Positions 57,702-63,968 of a DNA stretch of 64,000 bases are shown here, piece by piece. The DNA comes from Leptolyngbya sp. FACHB-261 (GTDB taxonomy: Bacteria > Cyanobacteriota > Cyanobacteriia > FACHB-261). Position 1 is the stretch's first letter, and every line of letters starts with the position of its first letter. The position numbers and the translations under genes are program-made. The notes beneath the pieces were generated by a model, which saw only the letters and a program-made list of their open reading frames with translations, ran no database searches and was not told the origin of the DNA. The stretch lies in contig NZ_JACJPL010000001.1 of the NCBI RefSeq assembly GCF_014696065.1, forward strand, positions 186,001 to 250,000, written 5' to 3'.

Positions 57702-58041
57702 TAACTTCGACTCCTTAGCAGAATTTGCTGGTGGAGCTTGGACTCGGTTGTCCTTGTCGGCTCCTAGCTATAGCAAACAACCTGAAAATGAGGGCTTCCT
57801 TAGAACCGCGTTAAAGATGCAAGCGTCTTAAGCCCTGCAACCTGAGAAGCAAATTGAGCAGTAATCTGAGAAGCAACTTGAAGAGCAACCGGACTTTGCA
57901 TCTGAATTAGCTTCAAACTTAATAAACAGCCAAATGGCTGCAAATAGCTGAAATGATCAAAGGCACGGCAGCAAATAACTGGCTAGTCAGCAAGCCATGT
58001 GTTAGCTTGCCTAAAAATCGCGTGTTCTGGATTGGTGCAGG
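57702..58041. other. Divergent promoter region, DM13 gene to coiled-coil membrane gene
   Basis: 340 bp. Two direct repeats of CTGAGAAGCAA (57842-57880) are visible. No gene or RNA recognised. Confidence 0.4.
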
Positions 58042-59373
58042 ATGGCCGGCTGGAAGTTCCCATTTTTCAACTTTGCTGGGAGAAAAGCGCAGAACAGCCC
58101 TGGCAGTAATACTCCTCCCCAGAGCCCACCACCAGCCACACCACCCCAAGCAGCGCCATTGTCACCGCCCGTTATGTCGGTGACTGCTCTGCAAAGAAAG
58201 ATGGAGGAGGAAGAGAGGCAGCTTTATAGCTATCCCCTCAACCGGAGTGCCAAGCCTCCAGGCATACGCAAAGCCTTCAACAAAGTTGTCTGGATCGCGG
58301 TCCTGCTCGGTATTCCGGTTGGGCTAGTGTGGCTGGCAAACTTGCCTTACCCAATGGTTCGTCGCCCCGTGGCTGCAAGCGCTCCGATCCTGCTGCTGCC
58401 TAGCTACATGAGCATGGAAGACAACTACAAGCAGGCAATTGCCTCAGTTGAGCAGGCAGACCAACTGATTAGCAACGCAACCAGTCCAGCCGACCTAGAT
58501 TTAGGACAACAAAAAGTTGAGCAGGCGCAAGAACATCTGGATGCGCTTCCCCTTGATTTTTTAAATGCTTGGCCTGAATACAGCTACTGGTGGTATGGTT
58601 GGCGGTTTAGCAACAGTCGGTTTAATTGGACTCGGGCCAGGGTTGCTCAACTCAAAGCTCAGGTCTTTCAAGAGAAGAATGCTCAGAATTTGCTCCTGAC
58701 AAGCGACCAAGCCGTTAAGTCGGCCAAGCAACAGTATGAGCAAGCAGCAACCCCTACAGACAAGCGTTTGGCTGTTGGGGCTTGGCGTTCAGCGCTTGAG
58801 CAGTTAGAGGAAGTTCCCGGCCAAACTCTGGCTGGAAAAACTGCACAACAAAAACTCGACGCCTACCAGCGCGACTTTCAAGAGGTGGTCGGTCTGGCAG
58901 CAGGCAGTGAGCGCGTTGGCACTTTGATCTCAGCAGCACAGGAGTTTTCCTGGCAAGCGGCGAAAGCCGGTCAGAATCCACCGCATACTGTCGCTGAGTG
59001 GGAACAGGTTAGAGGTTTGTGGCAGCAAGCTATCGAGTCTCTGGACCAGATCTCTTCAGATGATTTGGCAGGCTACGCAGAAGCGCAGAGATTAATCGCA
59101 CGGTACAAAACTGACTTAGGGCAAGTGGAAGTCCGGCTTCAGGAAGAACAAGAGTCAGTACAAGCTCTGGACCGAGCGAACGACCGAATTGAGCAATTAC
59201 TAGCCAAGACTCCGACAGATCCTAATTCTGTGGATAGCAATCTTGTTATCAGCCAGTTGCAGGGGATTATCAACGACCTGGATAAAGTATCGAGCGGTAC
59301 GACCTCCTATCTAAAGGCGCAGGAGCTTTTGCTATCGGCCAAGAATAAGCTGAAGCAATTGCAATCTCAGTAA
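58042..59373 (+). CDS. Membrane-anchored coiled-coil protein of unknown function
   Basis: A 443-residue protein. Residues 1-45 are Pro-rich and disordered. A single transmembrane helix (about 83-105, WIAVLLGIPVGLVWLANL) follows a basic segment, giving a long extracytoplasmic or cytoplasmic C-terminal part. Residues 140-440 are almost all helix with repeated Gln/Lys/Glu coiled-coil segments and several QLxxIxxLDK patterns. No family recognised. The last 90 residues are duplicated downstream (60468-60812). Together with the HNH gene this looks like an old two-gene unit, now split by a 1.1-kb segment. Confidence 0.7.
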   Translation: MAGWKFPFFNFAGRKAQNSPGSNTPPQSPPPATPPQAAPLSPPVMSVTALQRKMEEEERQLYSYPLNRSAKPPGIRKAFNKVVWIAVLLGIPVGLVWLANLPYPMVRRPVAASAPILLLPSYMSMEDNYKQAIASVEQADQLISNATSPADLDLGQQKVEQAQEHLDALPLDFLNAWPEYSYWWYGWRFSNSRFNWTRARVAQLKAQVFQEKNAQNLLLTSDQAVKSAKQQYEQAATPTDKRLAVGAWRSALEQLEEVPGQTLAGKTAQQKLDAYQRDFQEVVGLAAGSERVGTLISAAQEFSWQAAKAGQNPPHTVAEWEQVRGLWQQAIESLDQISSDDLAGYAEAQRLIARYKTDLGQVEVRLQEEQESVQALDRANDRIEQLLAKTPTDPNSVDSNLVISQLQGIINDLDKVSSGTTSYLKAQELLLSAKNKLKQLQSQ

Positions 59374-59411
59374 TGAGCAGAGAGCTTCATTACTCTGAGG
59401 ACAAGCTTTTG
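59090..59411 (+). repeat. 320-bp direct repeat, copy 1
   Basis: Aligns with 60524-60845 at roughly 80 percent by eye. It covers the last 95 codons of the coiled-coil gene and the first 13 codons of an HNH gene copy. The aligned stretch ends at GACAAGCTTTT in this copy, against GACAAGTTTT in the other. Confidence 0.85.
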
Positions 59412-59441
59412 CATTGCAACCAGATCTTGCGTCCAAATTAG
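59373..59441 (+). pseudogene. Truncated 5' end of an HNH endonuclease gene
   Basis: ATG at 59373 overlaps the TAA of the coiled-coil gene (TAATG) and reads MSRELHYSEDKL, then diverges and stops at 59441. It matches the start of the intact HNH gene at 60809 (MSKDLHYYEDKF), which overlaps its own upstream frame by ATGA. This is strong evidence that the intact arrangement was once coiled-coil gene followed by the HNH gene. Confidence 0.75.
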
Positions 59442-59482
59442 CTTCAGGCTTACCAATGGCTGGAGTTGAAGAGGTGCGATTG

Positions 59483-59776
59483 GTGCTCTGAACTGTGACA
59501 TCGGTGTTCTGAACTCCAGCATCGGTGCTCTGAACTGCGACATCAGTGCTCTGAACTCCGGCATCAGTGCTCTGAACTGCGACATCAGTGCTCTGAACTG
59601 CGACATCGGTGCTTCGAACTCCGGCATCAGTGCTCTGAACTCCGGCATCGATGCTTTGAACTCCGGCATCGGTGCTCTGAACTGCGGCATCGGTGCTTTG
59701 GGCTCCGACGTCGGTGCCCTATACCTCCGGCATAGATGTTCTGAATTGCGGCATAGATGTTTTGAACTGCGACATC
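59483..59776. repeat. 21-bp minisatellite, 14 units
   Basis: GTGCTCTGAACTGCGACATCA-like units in exact 21-bp register from 59483 to 59776, with variation mostly at the bases coding for the second half. The minus-strand frame reads as MPEFRAL/MSQFRAP heptads and is open from 59690 to 59367; the plus-strand frame reads GALNCDI/SALNSGI. No ATG with a site starts either frame convincingly. It lies in the segment between the two direct-repeat copies. Confidence 0.9.
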
Positions 59777-59964
59777 ACTGCTTAACTATCTAACTCTTCG
59801 GTATTAAGAGGCAACACTCCTAGAATTTGCGGAGAAATTGCTAGTGGTATAAGCAAAGTTCGGTAAAAGTACAGGTTAGCTCAGCCAGCTTGGGGGGCAT
59901 ACAAGATCTGACGGAGCAAGTTAATCCCGTCAAGCTCTCTTAATTAATTCAGGGACTGTGAGTT

Positions 59965-60441
59965 ATGGCAATTGGGCCAATTGATAGCACCCTTTCAGCT
60001 GAAGAACTGAAAGCAGTAATGACAGGTTTGGAGCTTGTAGAACAGAATCTCTCGTGCCTAATCGGACTAACGCCTGCTGAGCGACAAAAGCTGACTAAGA
60101 TGGGACGTAAGTCGCAGACCTTTGTAGGGCAGGCGTTGGCAATGGCAGCTAACTATCCAAAACTTATGCCGGGTTGTCTGGATGTGGAAGCAGCGCAGCG
60201 AGACCTGGCTCTGTTTGAGGCGCTCACACCAATCTTGCAAAGGCTTACTCAACTACAGGAGCTGGTTGGAGATACACAGATGCTGGCTGGCAGCGAGGCA
60301 TATGCCTCAGCGAGACTGGCCTACCGCTCGGCCCAGTCCACAGCCAAAAGTATGGGCATGGATGGGGTGGTCAGTGAGCTATCCCTGCAATACCGCAAGG
60401 CAACCCGTAAGAGCTCGACCGAGGACAAGACTGAGAAATAG
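59965..60441 (+). CDS. Conserved hypothetical protein
   Basis: A 158-residue helical, soluble protein. It has the stretches LSAEELKAVMTGLELVEQNLSCLIGLTPAERQKLTKMGRKSQTFV, FEALTPILQRLTQLQELVGDTQMLAGSEAYASARLAYRSAQ and MGMDGVVSELSLQYRKATRK, a pattern I associate with a widespread, uncharacterised bacterial family (GLTPAER..L.KMG.KS). No catalytic motif is seen. AGGGA is nine bases or more before the ATG. It is the only intact gene between the two direct-repeat copies and may be the cargo of the insertion. Confidence 0.75.
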   Translation: MAIGPIDSTLSAEELKAVMTGLELVEQNLSCLIGLTPAERQKLTKMGRKSQTFVGQALAMAANYPKLMPGCLDVEAAQRDLALFEALTPILQRLTQLQELVGDTQMLAGSEAYASARLAYRSAQSTAKSMGMDGVVSELSLQYRKATRKSSTEDKTEK

Positions 60442-60467
60442 ACCTCAAGCTGCACTTGTAGGCAAGA

Positions 60468-60812
60468 GTGGGCAAAGCAATGGATTTTGGAGTCTGCAAA
60501 GCAGTTCCACGATCCGTTGCTTTTTTATTGATTGCACAGTACAGAGCTAACTTAGGGCAGGTGGAAGTTCGTCTTCAAGCTGAACAGGACTCGGTACAAG
60601 CTCTGGATCAGGCGAAGGATCAAGTCGAGCAATTAGTGGCAAATACTCAAGCAGATCTGAATTCTGCAAATCGCAAGCTTGTTATTGGCCAATTGCAGGG
60701 AATCATCAATAGACTGGAGAAAGTATCGAGCGATGCGACCTCATATCTGGAGGCACAACAGCTTTTGCCATCAGTCAAGAATAAACTGAATCAATTTCAG
60801 CCTCAGCAATGA
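60468..60812 (+). pseudogene. Duplicated C-terminal fragment of the coiled-coil gene
   Basis: A 114-codon frame from a GTG. From about residue 20 (LLIAQYRANLGQVEVRLQAEQDSVQALDQ) it parallels the end of the 58042 gene (LIARYKTDLGQVEVRLQEEQESVQALDR). The first 20 residues have no counterpart, so it is a fragment that happens to stay open. The transmembrane helix is missing. It overlaps the HNH start by ATGA and may still provide translational coupling. Confidence 0.7.
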
Positions 60813-60845
60813 GCAAAGATCTTCATTACTACGAAGACAAGTTTT
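60524..60845 (+). repeat. 320-bp direct repeat, copy 2
   Basis: The partner of 59090-59411. It covers the fragment of the coiled-coil gene and the first codons of the intact HNH gene. The two copies flank about 1.1 kb containing the minisatellite and the conserved hypothetical gene. Confidence 0.85.
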
Positions 60846-61780
60846 CTCGCTTGAATGTGAATCGCCATCGCAAGCGGGGAGTAGCTCCATACAAACCGGC
60901 TCTACTCTTGGCGGTCATCGAGTTGATCGAACAGGGATTGCTCACTCAAAATCGAGTCTTTATCTCTGCTGATTTAATCGCAACCTTCATCAAATACCGA
61001 GATCTGTTAGGACCAGAGTCTTATCAAGCAGATCTGGCCCAACCGTTCTTTTACATGAGGAGCGATGGTTTTTGGCATCTCAAAGCGCAACCTGGTTTGG
61101 AAGCAGTTGTCTCTAAAGGTGTGCTGACAACGCTCAAAAAGTTGCGAGACACAGTTCAATATGCCTATTTTGATGATGAACTTTTTAGCTTACTGAATGA
61201 TTCAACGTCCAGGCATCGATTGATTCGAATTCTGGTCGTGACCTGGTTTCCTGATAGGAATCAGGAGATTGCACAACTTCTAAAAATCAACTCGTTTCAA
61301 GATTTTCAAGACCGTCTACGCGAGAAAGGTGGGGCAGTTTACGCAGTAGAAGAATTGAAGGATGAGAATAAAACCTTCGTAAGGGATGCAGCATTCCGCA
61401 AAATAGTACTACGAGCATATCAATACCAGTGTGCATTTTGCGGGTTGAAAGTAGATACCTCCCTCAACCAGAACATTGTAGACGGAGCACACATCAAGCC
61501 TTTCTCAGAATTCCGAGATGACCGAATCAATAATGGTTTATCTCTTTGCAAAAACCATCACTGGGCTTTTGATCGCGGTTGGTTCAGCATAGAGGATGAC
61601 TACACGATCCTGGTTTCTAATGACTTGAGAGAAGAGTCACCCCACGCAAAGCCCATGCAAGAATTTCAGGGCGAACGAATTCTCTTACCTAACCAGGAAA
61701 ACTACTTCCCCAGATCTGAAGCACTGCGTTGGCATCGAGAGAATAGATTTAATCGTGGTGAGCAGTTGTTAACGTACTAA
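60809..61780 (+). CDS. HNH endonuclease, possible modification-dependent restriction enzyme
   Basis: A 323-residue nuclease. The C-terminal HNH fold (about 195-275) has QCAFCGLKVD, the catalytic DGAHIKPFSEFRDDRINNGLSLC and KNHHWAFDRGWFSI. The N-terminal 150 residues, with RGVAPYKPALLLAVIELIEQGLL, resemble the sulfur-binding (phosphorothioate DNA) domain of ScoMcrA/SprMcrA-type enzymes, where this domain precedes HNH. So a type IV restriction enzyme that cuts phosphorothioated or otherwise modified DNA is the best guess, not proof. No dnd genes are seen. The start overlaps the upstream fragment by ATGA. Confidence 0.8.
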   Translation: MSKDLHYYEDKFSRLNVNRHRKRGVAPYKPALLLAVIELIEQGLLTQNRVFISADLIATFIKYRDLLGPESYQADLAQPFFYMRSDGFWHLKAQPGLEAVVSKGVLTTLKKLRDTVQYAYFDDELFSLLNDSTSRHRLIRILVVTWFPDRNQEIAQLLKINSFQDFQDRLREKGGAVYAVEELKDENKTFVRDAAFRKIVLRAYQYQCAFCGLKVDTSLNQNIVDGAHIKPFSEFRDDRINNGLSLCKNHHWAFDRGWFSIEDDYTILVSNDLREESPHAKPMQEFQGERILLPNQENYFPRSEALRWHRENRFNRGEQLLTY

Positions 61781-61910
61781 GCAAGAGCGCCCTCAGGCTT
61801 CAACCTGAGGCTACACAAATAAAACCTGCCTATGCACAGGTAACCAGACTCTTCCTAGTCTGCGAAGGCAGACTTCGCCTGTGTAGCCGCGAATTTATTC
61901 GCCAGGTCTC
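61781..61910. repeat. Hairpin-rich dispersed intergenic element
   Basis: CCTCAGG-CTTCAA-CCTGAGG (61791-61810), a CCTG-based second stem, AGTCTGC-GAAG-GCAGACT (61857-61874), and a GTGTAGCCGCGAATTTATTCGCC stretch. I recognise this arrangement as a repetitive element found between genes in cyanobacteria; it probably ends transcripts of both neighbours. Confidence 0.55.
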
Positions 61911-61919
61911 TATCGGTTT

Positions 61920-62171
61920 CTATTCGCCAGGGTCTTCTTCGCCCTGAAGTGAGCCACCGAGATAGAGCTTAATAAACTCCTCAGCCGCCTCTGCATTAAT
62001 TTTGCGCAGCGCTTCCACAATTTCTACGACATTCTCAGCAGAGGGATCTCGGTCTTCATGAACCCAGCGACCAATGTTCGAGCGGGGAAGGTTCATTGCA
62101 ACTGCTAACTTGTTCTGGCTGATGCCATGCGCCTCCAGCACCTGCTTGAGGGACCTGCCTGCTTTTCCCAT
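61920..62171 (-). CDS. XRE-family HTH regulator
   Basis: An 83-residue protein. The HTH is LKQVLEAHGISQNKLAVAMNLPRSNIGRWVHEDRDPSAENVVEIVEAL; the tail is acidic with EEDPGE. A strong AGGGG site precedes the ATG. The small size, autonomous HTH and the divergent gene separated by palindromes mark it as a likely repressor of itself and of the 62296 gene. The C-terminus abuts the hairpin element at 61781-61910. Confidence 0.85.
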   Translation of the reverse strand: MGKAGRSLKQVLEAHGISQNKLAVAMNLPRSNIGRWVHEDRDPSAENVVEIVEALRKINAEAAEEFIKLYLGGSLQGEEDPGE

Positions 62172-62244
62172 GCCCCTGATCGTGTCAGAGGATCATGATC
62201 GAGTAAATGTCACCGTGTCTGATGACGTTAGTGTAGAATCCTTC

Positions 62245-62266
62245 ATGTCACCAGATGCGGTGACAT
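62245..62266. promoter_or_regulatory. Palindromic operator in the divergent XRE promoter
   Basis: ATGTCACC-N6-GGTGACAT, a perfect 8+8 inverted repeat, 30 bp upstream of the plus-strand gene. A second imperfect TGTCACC half-site lies at 62208-62214 near a GATCATGATC palindrome (62191-62200). Two sites between divergent genes suggest cooperative repression by the adjacent XRE protein. Confidence 0.6.
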
Positions 62267-62295
62267 CACTTCTAATAGGATAAGGCTCGATCCAG

Positions 62296-62787
62296 ATGCA
62301 TAAAAGCTTCCTGCCGGGTGCGATTGCCGCACCCCAAGTTCCCGCGTGCTCAAATAGCCCCGCCGATCCAACCCCCAGTCGAGAACCCTTAAGAATTCTG
62401 CTCATCGGTTCTCGTCAAGGCATCAAACAGACCATTCAACGGCTGCATCTTCTGCGTTTTACTGAAATTGGAGCCTGGAGCCCCGCATTACCCACCGCCA
62501 TCCCAGGCGAATTAATTAGTATCTTGGTCCGTCATGTTCTCGGCGAGTGCCAAACCAGCGCTAGCAGAACCCCCTGGGTCCCCTCCTTCCTGGACATGGC
62601 CCCAACCTCAACTTCAACCGGCGAAACCATCAAGCTTTTTCTAATTGGCTCACCCAAAGCCGTCATCGAAACCATCGCCCGACTGCACCACCTAAACTTT
62701 GCTGATGCCGAAACTTGGAGCCCGCTATCTGCAACCGGCAATCCAGGCGAAGTAATGACCGTTTTAACTCGCTTATTGCAAGCCTGA
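62296..62787 (+). CDS. Protein with two tandem copies of a small cyanobacterial domain
   Basis: A 163-residue protein. Two repeats align: LRILLIGSRQGIKQTIQRLHLLRFTEIGAWSP...PGELISILVRHVL (about 32-82) and IKLFLIGSPKAVIETIARLHHLNFADAETWSP...PGEVMTVLTRLL (about 112-162). Related single-domain proteins of about 60-75 residues are common in cyanobacteria in my recollection; function unknown. The linker is Ser/Thr-rich. It is divergent from the XRE gene with operators between, so it is likely under its control. The start codon lacks a strong site. Confidence 0.7.
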   Translation: MHKSFLPGAIAAPQVPACSNSPADPTPSREPLRILLIGSRQGIKQTIQRLHLLRFTEIGAWSPALPTAIPGELISILVRHVLGECQTSASRTPWVPSFLDMAPTSTSTGETIKLFLIGSPKAVIETIARLHHLNFADAETWSPLSATGNPGEVMTVLTRLLQA

Positions 62788-62806: not shown

Positions 62807-63121
62807 CTAATCTTCAGCCAAAAGTGGATTTGACTCCAGCCAAGTCACCAAATCCTCAGCAGTTGAAAAGTCCAACAAAGCCTCAGCCAAATCCTCTAAC
62901 TGGTCGAAAGACAACTGGCAAATTCGAGCTTGCAACTCATGAGATAGCGACCCCAGGAGACGAGGGAGGAGGCGCAAGATAATGTACGATGCGCCTTCCC
63001 GCTTGCCCTGTTCGAAGGCTTCCTGAAAAGCCTCCTGAAAGCTTTCCTGAAATGCCTCTTGAAAACCTTCCTGAAAGGCCTTCTGTAAGATGTCCTGGAA
63101 AATCACCGACTCTTGCAGCAT
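62807..63121 (-). pseudogene. Truncated Rpn/DUF4351 gene
   Basis: A 104-codon frame starting at the Met of the conserved M.ESVIFQDIL motif, followed by an unusual FQEAFQE repeat tract and the DUF4351 tail (LLGSLSHELQARICQLSFDQLEDLAEALLDFSTAEDLVTWL). The whole nuclease half is missing. It lies 22 bp downstream of the full copy on the same strand, so it looks like a tandem partial duplicate or remnant. AAGGA lies too close to the ATG to be sure of translation. Confidence 0.65.
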
Positions 63122-63143
63122 TCCTTTCTGAGCCAGAAAAAAA

Positions 63144-63968
63144 CTAGGATTGCGCTCTCAGCCAGGAACTCAAATCCTCCAACGTAGAGAAATCTAGTAG
63201 CGCCTCACCCAGAGCTTCTAACCGAGCTAGAGAGAGCTGCTGAATTTGCGCTTGTAGATCAGGGGGAAGTGAGCCCAATTGGCGAGCAAGGAGGGACAGG
63301 ATAATCTTCAACTCACCTTTCTGCATACCCTGCTGCAAGCCCTTTTGCAGGATGTCCTGGTAAATCACTGACTCTTGCATAAGCTCCTCTCGAAAAACAG
63401 TACGAATCAGCTCTTTCTCAAAGCGAAGTCCCGCCAAAACCTGCGTGCAAGTCGAGATACTCTTGCGCTCAGCCGGTGCCTCGATCATAGCCACCTGAGC
63501 TGCCACTTGCTCCAGCAGAGCTTCTGGTGAATTAGTTTGCGCCAGCACAGCAAAAGGAAGCAGAGCCGGATCAGCCAGCAAAGGAGCCGGGTCTTGTTCC
63601 CACAGACGAATGACTCGATAGCCATGCCAGGTCTGCTCAACTCGGAACTCCTCCACAAAAACCAGCTCAGAGGTTGTGGGTTTGAGGAAAATCACGACCT
63701 GCTCGATTGAGCAACGATACTGGCGATACAACCTCACCCAGTAATCCAGCATGCGCAAAGGCATGTCGGCGTCAGGGCGAGTTTGGAATTCCAAATGCAG
63801 AAGTTGATTGCTAGTTTGCAGAAAGGTGAGCGCATCAGCTCGGATCGGCTCGTTGCCCAATTCAGTTTTGAGCACCCGAATGTCAGCCGCTTCAGTGGTT
63901 AGAAGCCAGCGGATAAACTGGGCAGGATACTGCTCAGCCAGATACTTACAAAGATTGTCGTAGTACAA
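63144..63968 (-). CDS. Rpn-family recombination-promoting nuclease with DUF4351 tail
   Basis: A 274-residue protein, the most complete of three related genes here. The N-terminal PD-(D/E)XK half starts YYDNLCKYLAEQYPAQF and includes ELGNEPIRADALTFL and the acidic LHLEFQTRPD strand (E-x-Q type). The middle LMQESVIYQDIL motif follows and the C-terminal DUF4351 (RQLGSLPPDLQAQIQQLSLARLEALGEALLDFSTLEDL) closes it. Rpn proteins are linked to DNA cleavage, recombination and defence. The assigned start is TTG at 63966-63968. The frame stays open to the window end (64000), so the true start may lie outside. Confidence 0.85.
   Translation of the reverse strand: MYYDNLCKYLAEQYPAQFIRWLLTTEAADIRVLKTELGNEPIRADALTFLQTSNQLLHLEFQTRPDADMPLRMLDYWVRLYRQYRCSIEQVVIFLKPTTSELVFVEEFRVEQTWHGYRVIRLWEQDPAPLLADPALLPFAVLAQTNSPEALLEQVAAQVAMIEAPAERKSISTCTQVLAGLRFEKELIRTVFREELMQESVIYQDILQKGLQQGMQKGELKIILSLLARQLGSLPPDLQAQIQQLSLARLEALGEALLDFSTLEDLSSWLRAQS

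What the first reader, a model, noticed from the sequence alone, without database searches (positions are those of the whole stretch)
59090..60845. Direct duplication of a gene junction around a 1.1-kb segment
The last 95 or so codons of the coiled-coil gene plus the first 13 codons of the HNH gene occur twice, 59090-59411 and 60524-60845, at about 80 percent identity. Copy 1 has the intact coiled-coil gene and a truncated HNH start (59373-59441). Copy 2 has a truncated coiled-coil fragment and the intact HNH gene. The segment between them carries a 21-bp minisatellite and one conserved hypothetical gene. The divergence shows the event is old. Duplicative insertion, or tandem duplication with later loss, could explain it; the cargo gene may have arrived with it.
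Basis: partly seen in the sequence, partly recalled or inferred. Interest (0 to 1): 0.75.

Follow-up and report, generated by a model that had tools for sequence, protein, structure and literature searches.

The report
Old tandem duplication, second copy decayed
In a filamentous cyanobacterium a membrane coiled-coil gene and the start of the defence nuclease gene behind it were copied in tandem long ago, and the second copy has since lost its front part to a repeat array and an unrelated small gene; it is a well-preserved but ordinary case of gene duplication and decay.

Summary
The repeat is real: 59091-59410 and 60527-60846, 320 bp, about 78% identical, far above chance. Copy 1 ends in 13 genuine HNH codons; copy 2 is a ~95-codon 3' remnant of the coiled-coil gene abutting the intact HNH gene. 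Where HNH homology stops in copy 1 (59410), a match begins (59416-59452, 78% over 37 bp) to the stretch upstream of the coiled-coil gene (57885-57921). Best reading: tandem duplication of a ~1.53-kb unit (upstream region, whole coiled-coil gene, HNH codons 1-13), then replacement of the front of the second copy by ~1.07 kb holding a 21-bp minisatellite and a small gene with its own terminator. The copies are sisters (98/66 support), dS 0.72, so the event is old. No relative examined has the two genes side by side, so no uninterrupted form polarises the event. The HNH gene is a sulfur-binding-domain + HNH (type IV restriction-like) enzyme in a conserved module; the 'cargo' belongs to a family with 11 matches in this genome, often next to NACHT/TIR/STAND genes elsewhere, and nothing shows it carried the duplication. 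Ordinary mechanism; low-moderate interest.

The parts
57878..57921 (+). P: stretch upstream of the coiled-coil gene, matching the sequence right after the HNH stub; likely left end of the duplicated unit
   Evidence: 44 nt 75% / 37 nt 78% match to 59409-59452
58042..59373 (+). intact coiled-coil membrane gene (443 aa), first copy
   Evidence: conserved gene in many cyanobacteria, mostly 42-60% identity
59091..59410 (+). direct repeat copy 1 (last 93-95 codons of coiled-coil gene + HNH codons 1-13)
59373..59441 (+). HNH stub ORF; HNH-homologous to about 59411; start codon overlaps the coiled-coil stop (TAATG)
59409..59452 (+). P': second copy of the upstream stretch, starting where HNH homology stops
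59482..59776 (.). 21-bp minisatellite, about 14 units; similar arrays at two other genome sites
59965..60441 (+). 158-aa 'cargo' gene, member of a family with 11 matches in this genome
60474..60526 (+). hairpin followed by T-run, probable intrinsic terminator of the cargo gene; ends at the left edge of copy 2
   Evidence: MFE -38.2 kcal/mol, z -4.37 over 60438-60540; several cargo paralogs also have hairpins downstream; the simple consensus scan did not list it
60527..60846 (+). direct repeat copy 2 (coiled-coil 3' remnant + start of the intact HNH gene)
60468..60812 (+). ORF (114 aa) holding the coiled-coil remnant; stop overlaps the HNH start (ATGA)
60809..61780 (+). intact SBD-HNH nuclease gene (type IV restriction-like)
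   Evidence: Pfam HNH_2, NCBIfam PT-DNA_restrict 148.6 bits (cut-off 180), PDB 8h0l SBDHga E 1.7e-20

Best explanation
Tandem duplication followed by decay. (1) A low-GC SBD-HNH restriction module (HNH, convergent HTH gene, ORF163) came to lie directly behind the coiled-coil gene, its ATG overlapping that gene's stop (inferred). (2) A ~1.53-kb unit from about 57878 to 59410 (upstream stretch P, whole coiled-coil gene cc, HNH codons 1-13) was duplicated in tandem, leaving P-cc-stub followed by P'-cc'-HNH (supported by the P/P' match at the junction). (3) The front ~75% of cc' was deleted or replaced; the gap now holds a minisatellite and a small gene with its own terminator, acquired separately (inferred). 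The remnant of cc' survives as the 5' leader of HNH; its TAA became CAA, so it now ends four bases into HNH. The order of steps 2 and 3 is inferred from the equal divergence of P/P' and of the two 3' copies.
For: Copies 78% identical and sisters in a 73-row tree, 98/66, end branches 0.17 and 0.22. The P/P' match begins where HNH homology ends; 0 of 1071 own-genome tiles and 1 of 20000 shuffled pairs reach its score, Gumbel p about 1e-4, and it is as diverged (78%) as the copies. P is not a dispersed repeat: other genome hits are at chance level. Pair dS 0.72, dN 0.17, omega 0.24 (0.12-0.48): much of the divergence accrued in coding DNA; copy 2 departs at 3 of 15 columns conserved in at least 90% of relatives, copy 1 at none. 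Okeania has two intact coiled-coil genes in tandem, 70-72% identical: such duplication happens in this family.
Against: The P/P' match is short (37-44 bp), was found by looking, and is not significant in a whole-genome search (E 0.6-3.3; expectation 0.085 in a 7-kb self comparison). No trace of the 5' part of cc' remains in 59453-60526. No close relative is held, so no intermediate stage can be shown. Tree support comes from only 91 columns.
Confidence: 0.66

Rival explanations
1. Duplicative insertion: a ~1.1-kb segment (minisatellite, cargo, terminator) was inserted at the junction and the repair or recombination that brought it in copied 320 bp of the junction to the other side.
For: The segment sits exactly between the two copies, and its right edge coincides with the end of a terminator-like hairpin.
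Against: Does not explain P' after the stub; no transposase gene and no inverted repeats joining the ends of the segment; 320 bp is far longer than target-site duplications of transposons; minisatellite and cargo are not linked as a unit elsewhere in the genome; low omega suggests copy 2 was not a dead fragment from the start.
Confidence: 0.17
2. Xenologous integration: DNA from a related strain carrying its own diverged coiled-coil/HNH junction was integrated by single crossover, so the 22% divergence predates the event.
For: Would give two diverged copies at once, both shaped by coding constraint (omega 0.24).
Against: No other genome examined has the two genes adjacent; the copies are each other's closest relatives.
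Confidence: 0.12
3. Chance or shared low-complexity coiled-coil sequence.
For: Coiled-coil regions align easily (many weak hits).
Against: Nucleotide score 291 against a shuffled maximum of 32, and homology continues across the gene boundary into HNH.
Confidence: 0.01

Closest known systems
Tandem gene duplication with partial decay of one copy (general knowledge)
   Same: direct orientation, sharp end point inside the neighbouring gene, equal divergence along the unit, relaxed second copy
   Different: the front of the second copy is replaced by unrelated sequence, so the unit is readable only from its two ends
Tandem coiled-coil gene pairs in Okeania (L149, L167)
   Same: same gene family duplicated head to tail
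   Different: both copies intact there; no HNH gene nearby
SBD-HNH phosphorothioate-dependent restriction enzymes (SBDHga 8h0l; screen in PMC7461809; ScoMcrA SBD in PMC6224610)
   Same: N-terminal sulfur-binding-like domain and C-terminal HNH in the window's gene
   Different: below the NCBIfam cut-off; activity untested

Membership tests
Tandem duplication | two copies in direct orientation, homologous by descent | tested here: met
Tandem duplication | sequence after the right end of copy 1 equals the left end of the unit | tested here: met
   P/P' match at the junction, local p about 1e-4 but short; moderate strength
Tandem duplication | whole unit present in both copies (fresh duplication) | tested here: not met
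   the middle of the second copy shows no residual similarity, hence later loss is required
Transposon / IS insertion | transposase gene, terminal inverted repeats, short identical target duplication | tested here: not met
   no such ORF between the copies, no inverted pair joining the ends among the pairs listed, flanking repeat is 320 bp and 78%
SBD-HNH type IV restriction enzyme | sulfur-binding domain | tested here: met
   residues 5-139 match SBDHga 8h0l, E 1.7e-20; pocket residues not checked one by one
SBD-HNH type IV restriction enzyme | HNH nuclease domain | tested here: met
   HNH_2 E 1.9e-13; AHIKP...NGLSLCKNHHWAFD present
SBD-HNH type IV restriction enzyme | NCBIfam NF045808 curated cut-off | tested here: not met
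   148.6 bits, cut-off 180
SBD-HNH type IV restriction enzyme | host lacks phosphorothioation genes | tested here: inconclusive
   no DndC match in the genome, 97.7% complete; Ssp and other Dnd genes not searched
SBD-HNH type IV restriction enzyme | cleaves phosphorothioated DNA | not testable with these tools
   needs an assay

The most novel reading that the evidence does not exclude
The 'cargo' family is an undescribed small helical protein of filamentous cyanobacteria that works with NLR-like (NACHT, NB-ARC, TIR, KAP) immune ATPases, and its landing here beside an SBD-HNH nuclease is the assembly of a new defence pair that uses a duplicated gene end as landing and expression site.
Probability: 0.1. 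Interest if true: 0.55.

Novelty: new member of a known kind. Interest (0 to 1): 0.27.

Why it matters
It documents how a restriction gene that looks horizontally acquired keeps an old host-gene end as its leader while the duplicated host gene decays. On its own this is routine genome evolution. The side finding, a multi-copy small-protein family repeatedly encoded next to STAND/NACHT/TIR genes, is the more useful lead.

Tried and rejected
Looked for an uninterrupted coiled-coil/HNH pair: none in the HNH and coiled-coil loci fetched from sampled class genomes, nor in 80 named coiled-coil loci with up to 10 kb flanks. Looked for cargo flanked by the repeats or by HNH: only one divergent HNH/cargo pair in G072 (L084). 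Looked for residual cc' sequence in the gap: none. Looked for P as a dispersed repeat: no. Cargo in viral contigs and plasmids: none. Solved structures for cargo: only chance-level globin matches. The simple promoter/terminator scan of the gap gave nothing above its shuffles.

Full report
Observation. The two segments align over 320 bp (59091-59410 and 60527-60846) with score 291 against at most 32 for shuffles and 78% identity without gaps over 300 nt. Homology runs through the end of the coiled-coil gene and 13 codons into HNH. That these codons belong to HNH is shown by relatives, whose proteins start MSKDLxYYxxKF. In copy 1 the HNH start overlaps the coiled-coil stop as TAATG; in copy 2 the TAA has become CAA and the remnant ORF now ends four bases into HNH, ATGA.

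What was duplicated. Straight after the last HNH-like base of copy 1 (59410) the sequence matches 57885-57921, upstream of the coiled-coil gene, at 78% over 37 bp (44 bp at 75% from 59409). No 340-nt tile among 1071 from the same genome reaches that score (best 27 against 34); 1 of 20000 shuffled pairs does, fitted p about 1e-4, and 0.085 such matches are expected anywhere in a 7-kb self comparison. The match is too short for genome-wide significance, but its place, abutting the break and taken from the 5' flank of the very gene that is duplicated, is what a tandem duplication of P - coiled coil - HNH codon 13 predicts. Under this model the second unit kept its left end (P') and its right end (about 95 codons plus HNH) and lost the middle, of which no trace is left.

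Age and constraint. In a tree of 73 C-terminal regions the two copies are sisters (98/66; 91 columns, so moderate evidence) with similar branch lengths. dS is 0.72, dN 0.17, omega 0.24 with bootstrap range 0.12-0.48; changes fall 13/12/38 by codon position. Polarised with outgroups, copy 1 has the coding pattern (2/3/11), copy 2 a flatter one (9/8/14), and copy 2 alone departs at three columns that are at least 90% conserved. A stop-free remnant is not by itself telling (19-27% by chance). This fits a period of shared constraint followed by decay of copy 2; it does not prove it.

Relatives. The search tools held no other member of the genome's family. The coiled-coil gene occurs across filamentous cyanobacteria. 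HNH matches occur in 86 of 242 sampled class genomes, many of them to the HNH domain alone, but no locus examined has the two genes together. HNH instead often lies beside the HTH gene and sometimes ORF163, the same neighbours as in the window, and occurs on cyanobacterial plasmids. Its GC (about 43%) is lower than that of the coiled-coil gene (about 52%). So the adjacency looks special to this lineage and must predate the duplication. Okeania species carry two intact coiled-coil genes in tandem.

The gap. The 21-bp minisatellite occurs at two other genome sites, each between the same two small genes. The cargo gene has no Pfam, NCBIfam, PADLOC or solved-structure match; it has 11 matches in this genome and relatives in 47 of 242 sampled class genomes, own included. 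It carries its own terminator-like hairpin, whose T-run ends where copy 2 starts. The three features were not found as a unit elsewhere, so they probably came separately from the duplication (inference).

HNH gene. Residues 5-139 match a solved sulfur-binding domain and the C terminus an HNH domain. With no DndC in the genome it is best read as a type IV, phosphorothioate-targeting restriction enzyme (family knowledge: PMC6224610, PMC7461809, seen as titles and abstracts only), though it is below the curated cut-off.

Judgement. Real, old, lineage-specific as far as the data go, and mechanistically ordinary.

Noticed in passing
59965-60441; L042, L044, L050, L051, L053, L058, L104, L108: The cargo family often sits just upstream, same strand, of STAND-type or AAA/KAP ATPase genes (NB-ARC, SMEK-NACHT, NNH1-NACHT, KAP, TIR-NACHT-NCH2) and once of MmeI (L054), in about 9 of 38 loci; no described family matches it. 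Enrichment was not tested against random gene pairs.
   Followed up: partly
62807-63968: An Rpn/DUF4351 gene is followed 22 bp downstream by a C-terminus-only copy with an expanded FQEx repeat: the same geometry (full gene, then 3' remnant) as the finding, 3 kb away.
   Followed up: partly
60809-62787; L072, L078, L079, L083: Conserved module HNH - convergent HTH - divergent ORF163; in several relatives a gene holding only the sulfur-binding domain precedes the full SBD-HNH gene.
   Followed up: partly
62207-62266: 20-nt inverted repeat (ATGTCACC...GGTGACAT, 85%) between the divergent HTH and ORF163 genes, a possible operator.
   Followed up: no
L022:1455-1884, L023:1470-1750: The same 21-bp minisatellite lies between two small genes (about 126-147 and 105 aa) at two other sites of this genome.
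   Followed up: partly
L149, L167: Two intact, 70-72% identical coiled-coil genes in tandem in Okeania.
   Followed up: partly
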